Below are positions 13,886 through 23,691 of a DNA stretch of 64,000 nt, in pieces (within the stretch, counting starts at the first letter, position 1; each line of letters starts with the position of its first letter). Location of the stretch: positions 1 through 64,000 of the forward strand of contig JAABRR010000006.1 of assembly GCA_011390785.1 (NCBI GenBank), in the 5' to 3' direction. The stretch comes from Sphingobacteriia bacterium. Lineage in GTDB: Bacteria; Bacteroidota; Bacteroidia; Bacteroidales; UBA7960. Position numbers and translations under genes: made by a program. The notes under the pieces are model-generated. The model was not told the DNA's origin. It saw only the letters and a list, made by a program, of their open reading frames with translations, and ran no database searches.

Positions 13886-15310
13886 TTAAATAGGTTTCTG
13901 AAAGTTTAGGCAATATTGATGAAAGGTATTGCTCACCCATGTGTTTCCATAACCATAAGGAGCTATGGAAATATCATCCTGACACCAGAAAGTTTCCGGC
14001 AATAAAATCAGTCTTTCTTGCAATGCATTGGATAAATCCCACGCAAAAGGGTAATTTCTCCCCTTTTTCTTGATGTTTTTAACCACGATGGTCAAATAGC
14101 CACCCGGTTTTAGCAATTCAATAATATTGAAATAAATTTCCGTTAAACTCACCACAAACTCTTCATAATCAACTATATTTCCCAGGTCTTTATCGCTGTC
14201 GGAATAGTTGGTCTGCAAGCCGAGGGTTAAACGTTTGGCCTGGTTCTCTGCCCCTTTCATATTAAGCATATCCCAATAAGGGGGTGAGGTAAGAATATAA
14301 TCCATAGCAGGAAAATCTCCAGGAGAAATATTTCGCGCGTCCTTATGTAATATCTTAAACGACATCTCTTTTTGCTGTGCGAATAGGTTTTCCTGTTGCG
14401 CAACCATAAAATCCTGGCACCTGCTTAGGGCAATATCCGCAAAAAATTCGCTGAGCTCTGTCCCATAACCATTGCGATTGAGTTTTAATGCCCCCAATTG
14501 TGTACTTCCTGTTCCTGCCATTGGATCAAAAACATTCTCTCCTTCACTCGTAAATTCACTAACAAACATAATTACCAAATCTTCCGGGTATTTTGCCGGA
14601 TGAAGTATCTCATTCTTTTTGCGTGGTTGCGGCTTCAAAATAAACCACGAAGGAATCTGATTTTGAAACCCGGATGATGGAGACAACTGCTTGTTGTTTT
14701 CAAAATAACGCACAGAAGATTCAATAAACTTGCCCTGTGTCATATCATCTTTCTTAAAATACAGACAATAGAAAAGCTGTTTTGTGGGCTGAAAAAGCCG
14801 CTCTTCCTGTACGTTTGTTTCCATTTCGGTACATGCAATTTTTTCATCCTTCAGAGAAAAAACCGATGACAGGTTTTTGGCCAAATCCCAGGCAAAAGGA
14901 AAATACCGATTATCAATCTGCCGGTTGGGTATAAGTATGCACAAAAATCTTTTGTGCTCAATCCGCTCATAAACTTTAATGGCCAGATTAACAATATTCT
15001 TTCTTGCAGTAATATAATCATCCTTATCAGAAACGGAATCAATGAACCCACGTGCATCAATTACAGCAAACTGAATGCTTTCGGTTTTTACATCATCGAG
15101 TGGAGTAATGACAATCTCGTTTTCATCGCAAATCTTCTTCGCGGTCTTAAAATCCTTACCCCAATAAGCAAAAACATCATCTACAACTTCTGCCTTACAA
15201 AAAAACCGGATGTTTTCTCTGAGCATTTTTTCGTCTGATTCGTATCGGAACCATGATTTCTGAAAGGGGAGCCATTCTTTGGAAGTAAGTCGGTTAAAGC
15301 GATTTTTCAT
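13886..15310 (-). CDS. DNA methyltransferase (SPPY-type, N4-cytosine/N6-adenine family)
   Basis: Motif I VFDPMAGTGSTQLGALKLNRNGYGTEL, motif IV DYILTSPPYWDMLNMKG, later ELLKPGGYLTIVVKNIKKKG. Confidence 0.85.
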   Translation of the reverse strand: MKNRFNRLTSKEWLPFQKSWFRYESDEKMLRENIRFFCKAEVVDDVFAYWGKDFKTAKKICDENEIVITPLDDVKTESIQFAVIDARGFIDSVSDKDDYITARKNIVNLAIKVYERIEHKRFLCILIPNRQIDNRYFPFAWDLAKNLSSVFSLKDEKIACTEMETNVQEERLFQPTKQLFYCLYFKKDDMTQGKFIESSVRYFENNKQLSPSSGFQNQIPSWFILKPQPRKKNEILHPAKYPEDLVIMFVSEFTSEGENVFDPMAGTGSTQLGALKLNRNGYGTELSEFFADIALSRCQDFMVAQQENLFAQQKEMSFKILHKDARNISPGDFPAMDYILTSPPYWDMLNMKGAENQAKRLTLGLQTNYSDSDKDLGNIVDYEEFVVSLTEIYFNIIELLKPGGYLTIVVKNIKKKGRNYPFAWDLSNALQERLILLPETFWCQDDISIAPYGYGNTWVSNTFHQYCLNFQKPI

Positions 15311-15399: not shown

Positions 15400-15571
15400 G
15401 ATTTAGCTTCGCTGATACTTCGTGGTCTCCCTTCGGTCGAAATGACGGGGCATACATGGGTTTTTATTGATGATAGGGTTGTTGGCGGCTTCGCCGCCAA
15501 CAACCCTATCATCCACCAATGTAAGTGTCTGTCATCCAGAACGTAACGAAGTGGAGTGAGGGATCTCATAT
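15400..15571. repeat. Intergenic repeat element with central perfect hairpin
   Basis: 19-bp perfect inverted repeat TGATAGGGTTGTTGGCGGC (15471-15489) / GCCGCCAACAACCCTATCA (15493-15511) with 3-nt loop, flanked by CTTCGGTCGAAATGACGG and GTCATCCAGAACGTAACGAAGTGGAGTGAGGGATCTCAT, similar to dispersed GTCATTTCGACCGAAG-type repeats. Confidence 0.7.
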
Positions 15572-15694: not shown

Positions 15695-15702
15695 TATACT
15701 TG
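15695..15702 (+). promoter_or_regulatory. Candidate Bacteroidetes -7 element for the trp leader
   Basis: TATACTTG approximates TAnnTTTG, 22 bp upstream of the leader ORF start. A clear -33 element was not evident. Confidence 0.3.
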
Positions 15703-15723
15703 CAACTTCAAAATCGATAAACA

Positions 15724-15804
15724 ATGACAAGCAATTTACATACTCATAATTTTTGGTGGTGGCACGGTAAGTTTATTTTCCGTGTTGAGCTCAATGGTCA
15801 TTAA
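15724..15804 (+). CDS. trpL: Trp operon leader peptide, 26 aa (MTSNLHTHNFWWWHGKFIFRVELNGH)
   Basis: ATG to TAA short ORF with three consecutive TGG codons (15754-15762) directly upstream of trpE and an intrinsic terminator. Too short for the supplied ORF track. Confidence 0.85.
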   Translation: MTSNLHTHNFWWWHGKFIFRVELNGH

Positions 15805-15880
15805 TGGATATGTAATTCGGATATAGTCTGTAAACATAAAAATAACGAGGACCTGCTTGACACACAAGCAGGTCTTTTTT
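15763..15880 (+). promoter_or_regulatory. Trp attenuator: mutually exclusive pause, antiterminator and terminator hairpins
   Basis: 1:2 CACGG (15763-15767)/CCGTG (15780-15784); 2:3 GTGTTGAGC (15782-15790)/GCTTGACAC (15855-15863), 9 contiguous pairs including 2 G-U; 3:4 terminator GACCTGCTTG (15850-15859)/CAAGCAGGTC (15865-15874) then TTTTTT. Confidence 0.8.
15850..15880 (+). terminator. Intrinsic terminator of the trp attenuator
   Basis: 10-bp perfect stem GACCTGCTTG-ACACA-CAAGCAGGTC followed by TTTTTT. Confidence 0.9.
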
Positions 15881-15913
15881 GTTGGTAAACATAAGAACAA
15901 AAACATTCAAAAC

Positions 15914-17347
15914 ATGCAAGTACTCACAACCCAACTGCCCGGAGATACCTTTACACCCGTAGGATTATATCTGCGTCTGCGCGACATCTTTCCCCACGCC
16001 CTGTTGCTCGAATGTACCGATTACAGCTCACGACAAAACGCGTTTTCGTACATTACTCTGAGCCCTTTCGCCGGCATAAAAGCCAGCGAATCCAGGTTTT
16101 ATCAAAAAGATATTAATGGCATAAAGAGTGAAACCAAACTGGACAATCCGCTGAAATTGCCTCTTCTTGTTGACGACTATCTTGATGAATTAAAGAGAAC
16201 GGGCATCCCAACCAATCAGCACATGCCTGGCATGTTTGGCTACACCAGTTTTGATGCTATCAATACCTTCGATAATGTTGCCATCGAAAGTCCGGGCAAA
16301 GCCAAAACCCGCATCCCCTTGCTCAAATATGATCTTTACCGGGTGGTGATATCCATCAACCATTTCAACAGCAATATTACCCTGACTGAAATAATCCCCA
16401 CAGGCGAAGAACCCATCACCCCAAAAGTAATTTCCATTTTATCTAACCGCAACAATACTTTCTTTCCTTTTCAAAGGGTGGGTGATGAAAGAGTGCTTAC
16501 CACCGACGATGATTTTAAAGACCATGTAAAACAGGGTATCAACTATTGTCAGCGGGGTGATGTATTTCAGATTGTGTTATCCCGTAAATATGAACAGGAT
16601 TTCTCTGGCGACGAATTTAATGTGTATCGGATTTTACGATCCATTAACCCGTCGCCATATTTGTTTTACTTCGACTTTCTCGAATTTAAACTCTTTGGTT
16701 CTTCACCTGAAATTCAGCTTCAGGTTGCCGATGGCAAAGCCATTATCAACCCCATTGCTGGCACAGTAGTTCGCACAGGAGATGTTGCTACTGACAATCA
16801 GCTAATTGAAGAACTGCTCAAAAACCCAAAAGAGAATGCCGAACATGCCATGCTGGTAGATCTGGCCAGAAACGACCTGAGTCGCCACTCCACCAATGTT
16901 AAGGTAAAAAGTTTCAGAGAAGTACAAACCTACTCGCATGTAATTCACCTGGTATCTACGGTGCAGGGCGATCTGGAGAAAAAAGGCAACCTGTTCCGTC
17001 TTTTTGCCGATACTTTCCCGGCAGGAACCCTCTCTGGCGCCCCCAAGCACAGAGCTATCCAGCTTATAGACCAGATAGAAGGTAAGGCACGCGGATTTTA
17101 TGGCGGGGCCATTGGCTCCATGGGTTTTGGCGATTCGCTGAATCAGGCCATCATGATACGGTCTTTTATGAGTAAAGATGGAACCTTGCATTACCAAAGC
17201 GGCGCAGGAGTAGTTATCCATTCCACTCCCGATGGAGAATTGAAAGAAATTGAAGGAAAAATATCTGCCTTGCGCAAAGCCGTAATCGGTGCCGAAAAAA
17301 TACCTCTTAGCCGTATGGCTCTTAATCCTGAACTTGCCAAATTGTAA
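15914..17347 (+). CDS. trpE: Anthranilate synthase component I
   Basis: QIVLSRKYEQDF, SPEIQLQV, NPIAGTVVRTG, DLARNDLSRHS, GTLSGAPKHRAIQLIDQIE, YGGAIG. Start set at the in-frame ATG (15914) because the track start (15857) lies inside the terminator hairpin. Confidence 0.96.
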   Translation: MQVLTTQLPGDTFTPVGLYLRLRDIFPHALLLECTDYSSRQNAFSYITLSPFAGIKASESRFYQKDINGIKSETKLDNPLKLPLLVDDYLDELKRTGIPTNQHMPGMFGYTSFDAINTFDNVAIESPGKAKTRIPLLKYDLYRVVISINHFNSNITLTEIIPTGEEPITPKVISILSNRNNTFFPFQRVGDERVLTTDDDFKDHVKQGINYCQRGDVFQIVLSRKYEQDFSGDEFNVYRILRSINPSPYLFYFDFLEFKLFGSSPEIQLQVADGKAIINPIAGTVVRTGDVATDNQLIEELLKNPKENAEHAMLVDLARNDLSRHSTNVKVKSFREVQTYSHVIHLVSTVQGDLEKKGNLFRLFADTFPAGTLSGAPKHRAIQLIDQIEGKARGFYGGAIGSMGFGDSLNQAIMIRSFMSKDGTLHYQSGAGVVIHSTPDGELKEIEGKISALRKAVIGAEKIPLSRMALNPELAKL

Positions 17348-17370: not shown

Positions 17371-17946
17371 ATGTCTAAAATACTCATTCTCGATAACTAC
17401 GACTCCTTTACCTACAACCTGGTGCATTACGTAAAGGATTACGGAACCCACGAAGTGGATGTTTTCCGTAATGACAAGATATCTATTGAAGATGTTGATG
17501 CCTATGATGGTATCATTCTTTCGCCCGGGCCCGGCATTCCCTCTGAAGCAGGTAACCTGATGCCCATTATCAAAGAGTACGCACCCAAAAAAAGGATTTT
17601 TGGTGTGTGCCTGGGATTACAGGCCATAGGCGAAGTTTTTGGTGGTGAACTGTACAATCTCGATGAAGTTTATCATGGTGTCTCCCATAGAATAAATCTC
17701 GTTAAGCCCCATCACTATATTTTTGATGGACTTCCAGAACAGATAGAAGGAGGAAGGTATCATTCATGGATGATAAGAAGGGAAGGACTACCGGAAGACT
17801 TAACAATCCATGCCACTGACGATCAAAACAGGGTAATGGCACTTTCGCACAAAGCTTATGATGTTTGCGCTGTGCAGTTTCATCCCGAATCTATCCTTAC
17901 CCCAATGGGAAAAGTAATTGTTTTTAACTGGCTCAGAAAGTTTTAG
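17371..17946 (+). CDS. trpG: Anthranilate synthase component II (glutamine amidotransferase)
   Basis: NYDSFTYNLVHY, LSPGPGIP, GVCLGLQAIGEVFGG, VQFHPESILTPMGK. Confidence 0.96.
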   Translation: MSKILILDNYDSFTYNLVHYVKDYGTHEVDVFRNDKISIEDVDAYDGIILSPGPGIPSEAGNLMPIIKEYAPKKRIFGVCLGLQAIGEVFGGELYNLDEVYHGVSHRINLVKPHHYIFDGLPEQIEGGRYHSWMIRREGLPEDLTIHATDDQNRVMALSHKAYDVCAVQFHPESILTPMGKVIVFNWLRKF

Positions 17947-17967
17947 CCAATCAAAATATTCATTCCA

Positions 17968-18963
17968 ATGAAGCAAATTTTAAATAAACTGTTAGAATCT
18001 CTTTCGCTTACCCGTGCCGAAGCCAAAGAACTGATGCACGGCATAGCCAACCAGGAGCTCAACGAATCGCAAATGGCGGCAGTGCTGGCAGCTTTCATCA
18101 TGCGAAGTGTAAACCTTGATGAATTGATGGGATTTCGCGAAGTTTTGCTCGAACTGGCCATCAAACCCAGCCTGAACGATAGCAACGTAATTGACCTTTG
18201 CGGAACAGGTGGTGACGCCAAAAATACCTTTAATATTTCCACTTTATCAGCTTTTGTGGTGGCCGGTGCCGGAGTACCTGTGGCCAAACACGGTAATTAT
18301 GGTGTATCCAGCCTTTCCGGTTCGTCCAACGTTATGGAAAATTTAGGTTATAAATTTTCCAATGATGAAGCCAAGCTACAAACTGAACTGGAGCAAACCG
18401 GCATTTGCTTTATGCATGCACCCCTGTTTCACCCTGCCCTTAAAGCGATTGGCCCGGTGAGAAGACAGTTGGGGATCAAATCGTTTTTCAATATTTTGGG
18501 ACCATTGGTAAATCCAGCCAACCCAAAATACCAGGCCAGCGGTGTTTTCAACCTCGAAACCGGCCGAATATACAGCTACCTGTTACAGCGTGAAAACAAA
18601 GAGTTCAGGGTGGTTCACAGTCTTGATGGATACGATGAAATCAGCCTTACGGCCAATACCCGTATCTTTTCTGCAAAAGGAGAAGGAATACTCACCCCCG
18701 AAGATTTTGGTATGGAAAACAACACCCCCGAATCTCTTTTTGGCGGTGAATCTATTGACGAAGCAGCGGTGATTTTTATGAATGTTCTTTCAGGAAAAGG
18801 AACTCAATCACAAAACAATGCAGTAATTGCCAATTCTGCCATCGCCATTTTGTGTTATAAAAAGGATATAACCGTTAAAGAAGCCGTACAACAGGCAACC
18901 GAATCATTAGAATCTAAAAATGCATTACATACTTTCGAAAAACTAATTAAACTACAAAAATGA
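17968..18963 (+). CDS. trpD: Anthranilate phosphoribosyltransferase
   Basis: DLCGTGGDAKNTFNIST, KHGNYGVSSLSGSSNVMENLG, GPLVNPANP. Confidence 0.96.
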   Translation: MKQILNKLLESLSLTRAEAKELMHGIANQELNESQMAAVLAAFIMRSVNLDELMGFREVLLELAIKPSLNDSNVIDLCGTGGDAKNTFNISTLSAFVVAGAGVPVAKHGNYGVSSLSGSSNVMENLGYKFSNDEAKLQTELEQTGICFMHAPLFHPALKAIGPVRRQLGIKSFFNILGPLVNPANPKYQASGVFNLETGRIYSYLLQRENKEFRVVHSLDGYDEISLTANTRIFSAKGEGILTPEDFGMENNTPESLFGGESIDEAAVIFMNVLSGKGTQSQNNAVIANSAIAILCYKKDITVKEAVQQATESLESKNALHTFEKLIKLQK

Positions 18964-19760
18964 ATATACTAGACGAAATCGTAGCTCACAAACGTGCTGA
19001 AGTGCAGGAAAACAAAGAACTCTATCCTGTAAAATTGCTGGAAAAAAGCCCCTATTTTCAGGCCACCCCTGTTTCTCTTAAAAAATATCTTTTAAGAACT
19101 GACCTTTCGGGTGTAATTGCTGAATTTAAACGCCAGTCGCCATCAAAGGGCATTCTGAATGAATACGCAAGTCCGGCCAATGTTTGTCTCGAATATATGC
19201 AGGCAGGCGCATCAGCCCTCTCGGTTATTACCGATTCAAAATATTTTGGCGGAAGCAACAAAGACCTTTCTACTGCCCGCAAATACAACTACTGCCCCAT
19301 TCTGCGCAAAGATTTTTTTCTCGATGAATATCAAATTATTGAAGCCCGCAGTATTGGTGCTGATGTGGTTTTGCTGATTGCCGAAATTCTTACAGCAGAA
19401 GAACTGAAAACCCTTTCAGCACTGGCTAAAAGCCTTCAAATGGAAGTACTATTTGAAATTCATGATGAAGAAAGCATTGCCAAACTCCCTGCTGATGCAC
19501 AAATTGTGGGTATCAACAACAGAAACCTGGATACTTTCGATGTCAGTATTGATCATAGTTTGAATTTATTGTCGAAGTTACCTTCCAACGCCGTTAAAGT
19601 AGCCGAAAGCGGAATCGACAGCCCCGAAACTGCCCTTGCACTCAAAAATGCAGGCTTTAACGGATTGCTCATGGGTACCCGTTTTATGAGAGAAGCTGAC
19701 CCCGGCAGAGCATGCAAGCTCTTCATCAAAGGAATGAAGAAATTAACCCATACTTCCTGA
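18960..19760 (+). CDS. trpC: Indole-3-glycerol phosphate synthase
   Basis: IAEFKRQSPSKGILN, ALSVITDSKYFGGS, CPILRKDFFLDEYQIIEAR, VGINNRNLDTF, AESGI. Confidence 0.96.
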   Translation: MNILDEIVAHKRAEVQENKELYPVKLLEKSPYFQATPVSLKKYLLRTDLSGVIAEFKRQSPSKGILNEYASPANVCLEYMQAGASALSVITDSKYFGGSNKDLSTARKYNYCPILRKDFFLDEYQIIEARSIGADVVLLIAEILTAEELKTLSALAKSLQMEVLFEIHDEESIAKLPADAQIVGINNRNLDTFDVSIDHSLNLLSKLPSNAVKVAESGIDSPETALALKNAGFNGLLMGTRFMREADPGRACKLFIKGMKKLTHTS

Positions 19761-19864
19761 AAAGGAATTAATGTTTGGCAACCCATCTTGTCTAAGGTTG
19801 GGACACAACAAGAAATCTCGTCTTAGGCCGAGCCACGGCAATGAACAAAGAACAAATGTAATCT

Positions 19865-20503
19865 ATGCAAAAACCAAAACTCAAAATATGCGGGATAACC
19901 GAAACCCAAAACATGTGGGATGTAGCGGCATTAAATCCTGATTTTATGGGTTTTATATTCTACCCACCTTCTCCCCGCGATGTCTCGGAGAAAATAGGTT
20001 CTTTACCCATTCAGAAACTACCCCATACAATAAAAAAGGTAGCTGTATTGGTAAATATGCCTTTGGCTGATGCTTTAAATATTATTGAATTGCATGGGTT
20101 TGACGTCGTGCAGCTTCATGGGCAGGAAACACCGGAATATTGCATGAAGTTAAAAGAGAAAGTGCAGGTAATCAAAGCTTTTTCGGTAAAAGATCAGTTA
20201 CCAGACAACCTGGAAGATTATGCTGCCGTTTGCGATTTTTTTCTGTTTGATACCAAAGCAGATAAACCTGGAGGTACCGGAATACGTTTTAACCATGACA
20301 TCATGGAAGAATATAATATGAATGTACCCTTCTTTTTGGGTGGGGGAATCGGACCAGAATATTTTGAGGAACAAAATCAATTAAATCATCCCGGGCTGTT
20401 TGCATGGGATATAAACAGTCGGTTCGAAAGCAGTCCGGGCATTAAAAACATTGATTTATTAATTAAAGCTTTGCACTTATTACCAAAACCGAGAAAACTA
20501 TGA
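19865..20503 (+). CDS. trpF: Phosphoribosylanthranilate isomerase
   Basis: KLKICGITE, DFMGFIFYPPSPRDV, VQLHGQETPEYC, FDTKADKPGGTGIRFNHD, FLGGGIGPE. Confidence 0.95.
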   Translation: MQKPKLKICGITETQNMWDVAALNPDFMGFIFYPPSPRDVSEKIGSLPIQKLPHTIKKVAVLVNMPLADALNIIELHGFDVVQLHGQETPEYCMKLKEKVQVIKAFSVKDQLPDNLEDYAAVCDFFLFDTKADKPGGTGIRFNHDIMEEYNMNVPFFLGGGIGPEYFEEQNQLNHPGLFAWDINSRFESSPGIKNIDLLIKALHLLPKPRKL

Positions 20504-21720
20504 CCCATCTAAATCCCAAAGCCTTACCCAACGAACGTGGATACTACGGTCCGTTTGGCGGGGCATATATACCCGAAATGCTTTATCCGAATGTTGAGGA
20601 ACTAAAAACCAACTACATCCCGATACTGGAAAGTGAGAAGTTTCAAAAAGACTTCCACAAGCTTCTTAAAGATTATGTAGGTCGCCCTACCCCACTCTAC
20701 CTGGCCGGCAATCTATCTGAAATGGTGGGTGCCAAAATCTACCTGAAACGTGAAGACCTTTGCCACACCGGAGCACACAAACTCAACAATGTTGTAGGGC
20801 AGGCCTTAATGGCCAAACATCTGGGTAAAAAGCGGATTATTGCTGAAACCGGCGCCGGACAACATGGTGTGGCATCAGCCACTGTTTGCGCTTTGCTTAG
20901 ATTGCCCTGTACTGTTTTTATGGGCAGCAAAGACATGGCCCGCCAAAAACCCAATGTAATGCGTATGCGTATGCTGGGGGCTGAAGTAATTCCGGTAGAA
21001 TCAGGCAGCAAAAGCCTTAAAGATGCTACCAACGAAGCCATCCGTTACTGGATCAACAATCCGTCAGAAACACATTACATCATAGGATCTACAATTGGTC
21101 CACACCCTTATCCTGATCTGGTAGCTCGTCTGCAATCGGTAATCAGCGACGAAATAGCCGAACAACTCCAACGACAGGAAGGTATTGATGCTCCCACGCA
21201 TGTGGTTGCATGTGCCGGTGGTGGAAGCAATGCTGCAGGAGCATTTTTCCGGTTTATTGGAAACGGTAAAACCATTTTAGTAGGCGCGGAAGCTGCTGGC
21301 GAAGGAGTAGATTCGGGACTTACCGCAGCAACCATTGCCAAAGGAACGCCCGGTATTATTCACGGTTGCAAAACGCTGCTGATGCAAACCCTTGACGGAC
21401 AAGTGGAAGAAGCACATTCCATTTCTGCCGGACTCGATTACCCCGGCATTGGGCCCATGCATGCATGGCTGGCCAAAGAAAATCTGGCGCAGTTTGTCCC
21501 CGTTACAGATAAGGAAGCAATGGAAGGGGTGAAAACCCTGACCCGTGCCGAAGGCATCATTCCTGCCCTGGAAACTGCGCATGCTATTACAGCTCTCTTC
21601 AAAATCAATCTGAAAAAAGAAGATATTGTTGTAGTGAATCTCTCGGGACGGGGCGATAAAGACCTGGATACCTATCAGGAATATTTTAAGAATGAGGAAG
21701 CCCAATTGAATGCCGTTTAA
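20500..21720 (+). CDS. trpB: Tryptophan synthase beta chain
   Basis: FGGAYIPEML, GRPTPLYLA, KREDLCHTGAHKLNN, ETGAGQHGVASA, CAGGGSNAAGAF. Confidence 0.97.
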   Translation: MTHLNPKALPNERGYYGPFGGAYIPEMLYPNVEELKTNYIPILESEKFQKDFHKLLKDYVGRPTPLYLAGNLSEMVGAKIYLKREDLCHTGAHKLNNVVGQALMAKHLGKKRIIAETGAGQHGVASATVCALLRLPCTVFMGSKDMARQKPNVMRMRMLGAEVIPVESGSKSLKDATNEAIRYWINNPSETHYIIGSTIGPHPYPDLVARLQSVISDEIAEQLQRQEGIDAPTHVVACAGGGSNAAGAFFRFIGNGKTILVGAEAAGEGVDSGLTAATIAKGTPGIIHGCKTLLMQTLDGQVEEAHSISAGLDYPGIGPMHAWLAKENLAQFVPVTDKEAMEGVKTLTRAEGIIPALETAHAITALFKINLKKEDIVVVNLSGRGDKDLDTYQEYFKNEEAQLNAV

Positions 21721-21817
21721 TTAATGCATGCAAGAAAACGCAAATCACTACGTTATGCCCGGCTTCAAAACAGTCAATTACGAAAAATAATTTAGAAATT
21801 ATAAAAAAACAATCCAT

Positions 21818-22594
21818 ATGAACCCATTGCAAACCCTTCTGGCCCGGAAGAAGAAAAATCTGCTCTCACTGTTTTTTACCGCAGGCTTTCCATATCTTGA
21901 GAGCGCAGAAGATATCATTGCCGCCGCAGAAGAAGCAGGTGTTGATTTTCTGGAAGTAGGCATGCCCTATTCCGATCCGCTGGCCGATGGCCCGGTAATT
22001 CAGCAAAGCAGCACCAAAGCCATTGCCAACGGAATGACCATCCCACTCTTATTTGAGCAAATGGCCAAAATTCGGGGTAAATATGAAATCCCTCTATTGT
22101 TGATGGGATATTTAAACCCGGTTCTGCAATATGGGACAGAGAAATTCTTTGAAAAAGCAGCTGAGAATGGTGCTTCAGGAATTATTCTACCCGATCTTCC
22201 CATGGACGAATACCAGGAAGAATATGAGCAACTCTTTCAAAAGTATAACCTGAGCATGATATTTCTGGTTACTCCACAAACATCTGATGAAAGAATTAAA
22301 AAGATTGATTCTTTATCCAATGCTTTTATTTATGTGGTTAGTTCAGCCGCCACAACAGGCAAACAGCAGGATTTTGGCCAGGCACAACAGGATTATTTTA
22401 AACGGCTGCAGGCAATGAATCTGAAAAGCCCCATGATTGCCGGTTTTGGTATTCACAACCACCAAACCTTGCAGCAGGCGTGGGAGGGATTGAACGGTGC
22501 AATTTGCGGATCAGCCTTCCTGAAAAAGCTGGAACAAAACCCCACACCAAAAGATGCCATGGCAATGCTGATGAAAGATCTGGGTTTGCAATAA
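21818..22594 (+). CDS. trpA: Tryptophan synthase alpha chain
   Basis: LFFTAGFPYLE, FLEVGMPYSDPLADGPVIQQSS, GIILPDLPMDEY. Confidence 0.96.
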   Translation: MNPLQTLLARKKKNLLSLFFTAGFPYLESAEDIIAAAEEAGVDFLEVGMPYSDPLADGPVIQQSSTKAIANGMTIPLLFEQMAKIRGKYEIPLLLMGYLNPVLQYGTEKFFEKAAENGASGIILPDLPMDEYQEEYEQLFQKYNLSMIFLVTPQTSDERIKKIDSLSNAFIYVVSSAATTGKQQDFGQAQQDYFKRLQAMNLKSPMIAGFGIHNHQTLQQAWEGLNGAICGSAFLKKLEQNPTPKDAMAMLMKDLGLQ

Positions 22595-22674: not shown

Positions 22675-23691
22675 ATGCTGATACAATTAACTGACAATTG
22701 CACCAACCAGGAGCTGGACAATATCCAAACAGGACTGAAAAACATAAGCTACAAAGGAAATGTGGTAGAAACCCGAAATGCTAAGTATCTGATATGCAAC
22801 GGGAAAAAAGAAATAGACATTCGACTTTTCGGTAACATGCCCGGGGTAAAAGACATCCACATTGTGGAAGATGACAATAAGCTGGTTTCGCGCAAATGGC
22901 GTGTTGAAGACACAGTAATCACCTGCAACGATGGTGTGGAAATATCGAGAAAAGACCTTACCATTGTTATGGGCCCATGCTCTATAGAAGACGAAGAGCA
23001 GGTTGTTAAAACTGTAGATTTCCTAAAAGAAAATGGCATCAAATTTATGCGGGGCGGAATTTTCAAACCAAGAAGTTCGCCTTATGCATTCCGCGGCCTG
23101 GGGATCGAAGGGTTAAAATTTTTCTCGCGAATTTGCCGTGAGAATGGAATAAAAGTAGTGAGTGAAGTTATGCAGGTATCACAAATTGAAGAAATGTACG
23201 AATACATTGATGTTTACCAGGTGGGTACCCGCAATGCGCAAAACTTCAACCTCCTCGATGCATTGGGAGAAGTAGATAAACCGGTATTACTCAAAAGGGG
23301 GATGTCCTCTACCATCCAGGAGTTTCTGGCATCAGCCGAGTATATTTTCTCCAATGGAAATGAAAACATCATCCTTTGCGAGCGTGGTGTTCGTACCTTC
23401 GAAAAAGCGTACCGTAACACCATGGATATCAATGCCATTCCCTATCTTCACGACAAAAGTCACCTTCCTGTTTTTGCAGATCCATCACACGCTGTGGGTA
23501 TCCGTGATTATGTTGAGCAGATCGCATTGTCGTCGGTAATGGCAGGTGCTGACGGGGTTTTGATAGAAATTCATGAAGTCCCCCAAAAAGCTGCATCCGA
23601 CGGGGCTCAAACCCTGGACTTTTACCAGGCCAAACGAGCCATAAACAGATTACGCGAAACAGCAGAACTGCGTAAAAGAATTATGGTGTAG
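22675..23691 (+). CDS. aroF: 3-deoxy-7-phosphoheptulonate (DAHP) synthase with N-terminal extension
   Basis: VMGPCSIEDEEQV, FMRGGIFKPRSSPYAFRGLGIEG, VLLKRGMSSTIQEFLASAEYI, PVFADPSHAVG. Confidence 0.93.
   Translation: MLIQLTDNCTNQELDNIQTGLKNISYKGNVVETRNAKYLICNGKKEIDIRLFGNMPGVKDIHIVEDDNKLVSRKWRVEDTVITCNDGVEISRKDLTIVMGPCSIEDEEQVVKTVDFLKENGIKFMRGGIFKPRSSPYAFRGLGIEGLKFFSRICRENGIKVVSEVMQVSQIEEMYEYIDVYQVGTRNAQNFNLLDALGEVDKPVLLKRGMSSTIQEFLASAEYIFSNGNENIILCERGVRTFEKAYRNTMDINAIPYLHDKSHLPVFADPSHAVGIRDYVEQIALSSVMAGADGVLIEIHEVPQKAASDGAQTLDFYQAKRAINRLRETAELRKRIMV

What the first reader, a model, noticed from the sequence alone, without database searches (positions are those of the whole stretch)
15724..15880. 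Complete leader-peptide attenuator upstream of a Bacteroidetes trp operon
Seen directly: a 26-codon ORF (MTSNLHTHNFWWWHGKFIFRVELNGH) with three adjacent TGG codons. A pause-type hairpin CACGG/CCGTG begins right after the Trp codons. A 9-bp alternative pairing GTGTTGAGC/GCTTGACAC is incompatible with both the pause hairpin and the terminator. A 10-bp terminator stem plus T6 follows. A ribosome stalled on WWW would cover CACGG and favour antitermination. This is the logic of E. coli trpL, with unrelated sequence and in a phylum where the mechanism is much less studied. The supplied ORF track missed the leader and started trpE inside the terminator.
Basis: partly seen in the sequence, partly recalled or inferred. 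Interest (0 to 1): 0.85.

Follow-up and report, generated by a model that had tools for sequence, protein, structure and literature searches.

The report
Tryptophan-sensing leader of a trp operon
A short peptide gene with three tryptophan codons and a set of competing RNA hairpins sit just before a tryptophan-making operon and very probably switch it off when tryptophan is plentiful; the same arrangement turned up before nearly every trp operon examined in this class of bacteria, although the RNA-family database searched does not contain it.

Summary
It is not chance. WW/WWW leaders followed by terminators precede the first trp gene in 103 of 122 upstream regions drawn from the family and order and in 64 of 80 further loci including named Flavobacteriales, Chitinophagales and Sphingobacteriales; all 29 loci inspected in a class sample have a Trp-rich leader. 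Where trpB has moved to the front, the leader sits before trpB. Pairings 1:2 and 2:3 co-evolve across 134 non-redundant leaders (z -10.1 and -17.6; valid controls show nothing), and 2:3 is 98% paired with compensatory changes in 19 close relatives. Conserved RNA is read in different frames, so RNA and Trp codons, not the peptide, are conserved. Best explanation: ribosome-mediated transcription attenuation with E. coli trpL logic but unrelated sequence; no Rfam family matches. It is a new member of a known kind. Premature termination and the response to tryptophan remain untested.

The parts
15695..15702 (+). Bacteroidota-type -7 box TATACTTG (consensus TAnnTTTG); transcription start inferred about 15708-15712
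   Evidence: sequence; the strict motif lies 20-110 nt before the Trp codons in 86 of 172 leaders against 10.5 expected in shuffled sequence; start site itself is inferred
15724..15804 (+). leader peptide ORF, 26 codons, MTSNLHTHNFWWWHGKFIFRVELNGH, stop TAA
   Evidence: counterparts with WW/WWW in 103 of 122 family/order upstream regions
15754..15762 (+). three adjacent Trp codons (regulatory codons)
15763..15767 (+). segment 1 (CACGG), 5' arm of hairpin 1:2; lies under a ribosome stalled at the Trp codons
   Evidence: covariation of 1:2; ribosome footprint from general knowledge
15780..15784 (+). 3' arm of hairpin 1:2 (CCGTG), overlapping segment 2
15782..15790 (+). segment 2 (GTGTTGAGC), 5' arm of the antiterminator 2:3, inside the leader ORF
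15855..15863 (+). segment 3 (GCTTGACAC), 3' arm of the antiterminator; lies in terminator 5' arm and loop
15850..15880 (+). intrinsic terminator 3:4 (10-bp stem, 5-nt loop) with T6
   Evidence: 100% of cells paired in 19 relatives
15914..17347 (+). trpE, anthranilate synthase component I (true start ATG 15914)
17371..22594 (+). trpG, trpD, trpC, trpF, trpB, trpA in this order
   Evidence: NCBIfam
22675..23691 (+). DAHP synthase gene downstream, probably the last gene of the operon
   Evidence: NF006421/TIGR01361 above cut-off; co-transcription inferred

Best explanation
This is a ribosome-mediated (leader-peptide) transcription attenuator of the trp operon. RNA polymerase starts about 12-16 nt upstream of the leader ATG (inferred) and a ribosome follows it into the leader ORF. 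With charged tRNA-Trp scarce, the ribosome stalls at the three Trp codons and covers segment 1 (15763-15767). Segment 2 (15782-15790) is then free to pair with segment 3 (15855-15863) as soon as that emerges, which removes the 5' arm of the terminator, so transcription continues into trpE. With Trp plentiful, the ribosome runs on through segment 2 to the stop codon at 15802-15804 and blocks 2:3; if there is no translation, 1:2 forms. In both cases the 3:4 terminator forms and transcription ends near 15880. Shown here: the sequence elements, their mutual exclusivity, covariation, conservation and operon context. Inferred: start site, translation of the ORF, stalling and Trp-dependent termination.
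For: Element coordinates and folds: full transcript folds as 1:2 + 3:4; with segment 1 masked and arm 4 not yet made, the minimum-energy fold contains the 9-bp 2:3 helix. Conservation across family and order, in a second collection with named Flavobacteriales, Chitinophagales, Sphingobacteriales and Bacteroidales, and 29 of 29 loci in a class sample. The leader moves with the operon's first gene, before trpB in trpB-first operons. Own-partner versus swapped-partner pairing energies over 134 non-redundant leaders: 1:2 z -10.1, 2:3 z -17.6, controls 1:3 z -1.4 and spacer:3 z +3.5; 128 of 134 use the same segment-2 bases for both pairings. Alignment of 19 relatives: 1:2 and 3:4 91% paired with 26 double changes against 10.3 shuffled, 0 of 500; 2:3 98% paired against 25-43% when slid, three compensated pairs. 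Segment 2 is read as VLS in L008 and L020 and as CVK/CVE in L009 and others, so RNA rather than peptide is conserved. Trp is the only residue with abundant triple runs.
Against: No expression data. The start site and leader translation are inferred, and no Shine-Dalgarno is expected or seen. The window's own 2:3 helix has two G-U pairs and is only moderately significant on its own (p 0.015). Outside the window's clade many single leaders have weak individual 2:3 scores (only 50 of 167 at p <= 0.05); the signal there is strong only in aggregate.
Confidence: 0.93

Rival explanations
1. The hairpin is only the terminator of the upstream gene and the WWW ORF is accidental.
For: An intrinsic terminator between two genes is usually just a gene end.
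Against: The upstream gene (13886-15310) is on the opposite strand, so nothing on + needs terminating there. WWW leaders before a terminator recur across the order and class, with covarying alternative pairings.
Confidence: 0.01
2. A nascent-peptide sensor of free tryptophan, as in TnaC, with the peptide sequence itself arresting the ribosome.
For: A Trp-containing leader peptide upstream of Trp-related genes.
Against: The peptide is not conserved apart from the Trp run; segment-2 codons are read in different frames in different species. TnaC governs degradation, has a single critical Trp and uses Rho (general knowledge). Segment 1 begins right after the Trp codons, as expected for codon-dependent stalling.
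Confidence: 0.02
3. A protein- or tRNA-binding attenuator (TRAP, T-box) or a Trp riboswitch, with the ORF incidental.
For: Such systems also use alternative hairpins before trp genes in other phyla.
Against: No T-box or any other Rfam family at gathering score, and nothing credible at relaxed score. The Trp run in a short ORF is the conserved feature.
Confidence: 0.01
4. The leader acts mainly by translational coupling or reinitiation at trpE rather than through the terminator.
For: Short leader ORFs can raise downstream translation by reinitiation (PMC4833913 reports a spacing peak of 11-14 bp in Bacteroidetes).
Against: The leader stop is 109 nt before the trpE ATG here, far beyond that spacing, and a strong terminator lies between.
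Confidence: 0.02

Closest known systems
E. coli trpL leader-peptide attenuator (Rfam RF00513 Trp_leader)
   Same: Leader ORF with adjacent Trp codons, alternative hairpins 1:2, 2:3 and 3:4, terminator with U-run, position before trpE, same predicted logic.
   Different: No Rfam match. Three Trp codons rather than two. The leader ORF extends through segment 2, with the stop 12 nt beyond its end, whereas in E. coli the stop precedes segment 2 (E. coli facts from general knowledge). In this set the stop lies inside the best-pairing segment 2 in 103 of 167 leaders, after it in 39 and before it in 25.
Leader-peptide attenuation reported in Flavobacterium psychrophilum (PMC9723704)
   Same: Same phylum; [quoted passage not shown]
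   Different: The main text does not mention trp; supplementary tables were not readable. No covariation or class-wide survey was found there.
Computational attenuator predictions of Vitreschak et al. 2004 (FEMS Microbiol Lett)
   Same: From memory: predicted amino-acid operon attenuators also in Bacteroidetes/Chlorobi.
   Different: Paper not held, so which operons and species cannot be checked.
peTrpL / rnTrpL of Sinorhizobium meliloti (PMC7298713)
   Same: Trp leader peptide attenuator before trpE.
   Different: Alphaproteobacterial; trans roles of the peptide or leader RNA reported there were not examined here.

Membership tests
Ribosome-mediated (leader-peptide) transcription attenuators | short ORF with a run of codons for the amino acid made by the operon | tested here: met
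   WWW at 15754-15762; WWW dominates terminator-linked leader ORFs across relatives
Ribosome-mediated (leader-peptide) transcription attenuators | intrinsic terminator between leader ORF and first structural gene | tested here: met
   15850-15880; terminator stem kept in all 19 relatives
Ribosome-mediated (leader-peptide) transcription attenuators | antiterminator pairing mutually exclusive with 1:2 and 3:4 | tested here: met
Ribosome-mediated (leader-peptide) transcription attenuators | segment 1 within reach of a ribosome stalled at the regulatory codons, segment 2 outside it | tested here: met
   segment 1 begins 1 nt and segment 2 20 nt after the last Trp codon; median segment-2 start 19 nt after it over 167 leaders; footprint size from general knowledge
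Ribosome-mediated (leader-peptide) transcription attenuators | conserved structures by covariation | tested here: met
Ribosome-mediated (leader-peptide) transcription attenuators | Trp-dependent premature termination in vivo | not testable with these tools
   needs RNA data or a reporter
Rfam RF00513 Trp_leader (proteobacterial trpL) | match to the covariance model | tested here: not met
   no match at gathering score; not among matches with E up to 10
T-box (RF00230) | match to the covariance model | tested here: not met

The most novel reading that the evidence does not exclude
Leader-peptide attenuation of trp is an old, class-wide trait of Bacteroidia, sequence-unrelated to the proteobacterial Trp_leader family, which tracks the first gene of the operon through operon rearrangements and in several lineages is doubled into two attenuators in series. 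This contradicts the view, drawn from RNA-family surveys, that amino-acid attenuators are essentially a gammaproteobacterial invention with few transfers (PMC3766115).
Probability: 0.55. Interest if true: 0.58.

Novelty: new member of a known kind. Interest (0 to 1): 0.42.

Why it matters
It gives a concrete, testable trp control element for a phylum that dominates gut and marine communities, where amino-acid operon control is little studied. It also shows that the RNA-family models in common use overlook a regulator that is present before nearly every trp operon examined in the class. A covariance model or leader-ORF search built from it would let annotators find the element, and would stop trpE being called from a false start inside the terminator.

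Tried and rejected
A rigid DNA pattern for the leader in 296 genomes was badly designed and found mostly unrelated sites; abandoned. A single-sequence shuffle test of 2:3 was underpowered outside the window's clade; replaced by the partner-swap test. In one search the 1:2 windows overlapped, so only one search is used; one control (leader-upstream:3) is invalid because some sequences were empty. Considered and rejected: T-box, TRAP, TnaC-like sensing, reinitiation, an ordinary gene-end terminator. The source paper for the 2004 predictions was not held. Classes of the phylum other than the window's were not assessed: their TrpE fell below the threshold used.

Full report
Observation. Window 15724-15804 encodes MTSNLHTHNFWWWHGKFIFRVELNGH. 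The Trp codons are 15754-15762. CACGG (15763-15767) can pair with CCGTG (15780-15784); GTGTTGAGC (15782-15790) can pair with GCTTGACAC (15855-15863); and GACCTGCTTG/CAAGCAGGTC (15850-15874) forms a terminator followed by T6. The upstream neighbour (13886-15310) is on the other strand, so the terminator is not the end of an upstream gene. The ORF list starts trpE at TTG 15857 inside the terminator, but alignments to homologues begin at ATG 15914. A Bacteroidota-type -7 element, TATACTTG, lies at 15695-15702, which puts the start of transcription just upstream of the leader ATG (inferred).

Context. Downstream are trpE, trpG, trpD, trpC, trpF, trpB, trpA and a DAHP synthase gene, all on + (NCBIfam).

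Conservation. TrpE was searched in 101 relatives and then in 296 genomes of the order, spread over about 120 families. Upstream DNA of 122 loci was examined. An ATG-led ORF with adjacent Trp codons followed by a terminator was found in 103 of the 122. Where trpB precedes trpE, the leader is before trpB instead, in nearly all such loci with enough upstream DNA. A scan of a second collection gave 64 of 80 loci with such a leader, including Tenacibaculum, Polaribacter, Lutibacter, Salinimicrobium, Chitinophaga, Sphingobacterium, Sunxiuqinia, Maribellus, Carboxylicivirga, Dysgonomonas and Parabacteroides. All 29 loci inspected from a class sample have a Trp-rich leader, 26 with a detected terminator. 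As a control on chance, triple residue runs in terminator-linked leaders are WWW in 56 of 122 loci and any other residue in at most 4.

Structure. The full leader folds as 1:2 plus the terminator. With segment 1 masked and arm 4 not yet transcribed, the minimum-energy fold contains the 9-bp 2:3 helix. Whole-leader folding energy has z = -2.9 against dinucleotide shuffles. In 19 sequences from the window's clade (alignment A2), 1:2 and 3:4 together form standard pairs in 91% of cells with 26 double changes (10.3 in shuffles, 0 of 500 as high). 2:3 is 98% paired against 25-43% for slid versions, with three compensated pairs, for example A-U for G-C in L017 and a C-G for U-A change in L031. Over 134 non-redundant leaders, each leader's own partners pair better than swapped partners: 1:2 z = -10.1, 2:3 z = -17.6; controls 1:3 z = -1.4 and spacer:3 z = +3.5. 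In 128 of 134, at least three segment-2 bases serve both 1:2 and 2:3, so the two are mutually exclusive. Relatedness inflates such z values, but the controls share the same relatedness and show nothing.

RNA or peptide? The stretch GTGTTAAGC is read as VLS in L008 and L020 but as CVK in L009, L016 and others. The RNA pairing is conserved and the peptide is not, apart from the Trp run. This argues against peptide-specific arrest and for codon-dependent stalling.

Specificity. A covariance model of the element has one match at E <= 1 in the window's 4.8-Mb genome, at 15754-15882. No Rfam family matches.

Mechanism. As in the best explanation. The difference from E. coli trpL is the position of the stop codon: here the ribosome must translate segment 2 to finish the leader, so completing ribosomes sit on segment 2 directly. 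Across 167 leaders the stop falls within the best-pairing segment 2 in 103, after it in 39 and before it in 25.

Known or new. The logic is textbook. A Flavobacterium psychrophilum transcriptome paper already reports strong clues for leader-peptide attenuation before amino-acid operons (PMC9723704), and from memory a 2004 comparative study predicted attenuators in Bacteroidetes/Chlorobi (not held). On the other hand, a 255-genome survey based on Rfam models concluded that amino-acid attenuators may have originated in gammaproteobacteria with few transfers (PMC3766115), and the literature searches made here found no description of a trp attenuator in this class. Hence: a new member of a known kind, ordinary in mechanism, with some interest in its breadth.

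Limits. No transcript data; the start site, leader translation, stalling and Trp-dependent termination are inferences.

Noticed in passing
L021, L047, L054, L094, L106, L163, L166, L192 (upstream of trpE): Two complete leader-ORF plus terminator units in series before trpE. In most, only about 21-34 nt separate the first terminator from the second ATG, too little for a separate promoter (L054 uses a later ATG; L088 has a second WWW ORF without a detected terminator). In the Prolixibacteraceae-like set the first unit encodes a conserved IWLPWWGL motif. This looks like tandem trp attenuators read from one promoter; tandem attenuators are described for Salmonella mgtCBR (PMC3641672), no trp case was found.
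   Followed up: partly
15809-15838; also L003, L004, L006, L007, L012: Between the leader stop and the terminator the window and its same-genus relatives share a conserved hairpin-forming spacer (TATGT...CAGA/TCTG...ACATA) of unknown role; more distant relatives lack it.
   Followed up: no
L098, L099, L100, L027, L079 and many other loci of the order: Outside the window's clade the antiterminator has another recurring form: CGTGAG about 20 nt after the Trp codons with CTCACG in the terminator loop, plus AGCC/GGCT, instead of GTGTTRAGC/GCTTRACAC.
   Followed up: partly
L246, L247: Leaders with separated Trp codons (AWLWQ, TWLWQ) in place of WWW before trpE in one family.
   Followed up: no
window 15857: Mechanical ORF calling starts trpE at a TTG inside the terminator, adding 19 false residues; likely a recurrent annotation error wherever such leaders are unrecognised.
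   Followed up: no
window 15470-15515: A perfect inverted repeat (gatgatagggttgttggcggc / gccgccaacaaccctatcatc) stands between the minus-strand gene and the trp promoter; role unknown, perhaps a terminator or mobile repeat.
   Followed up: no
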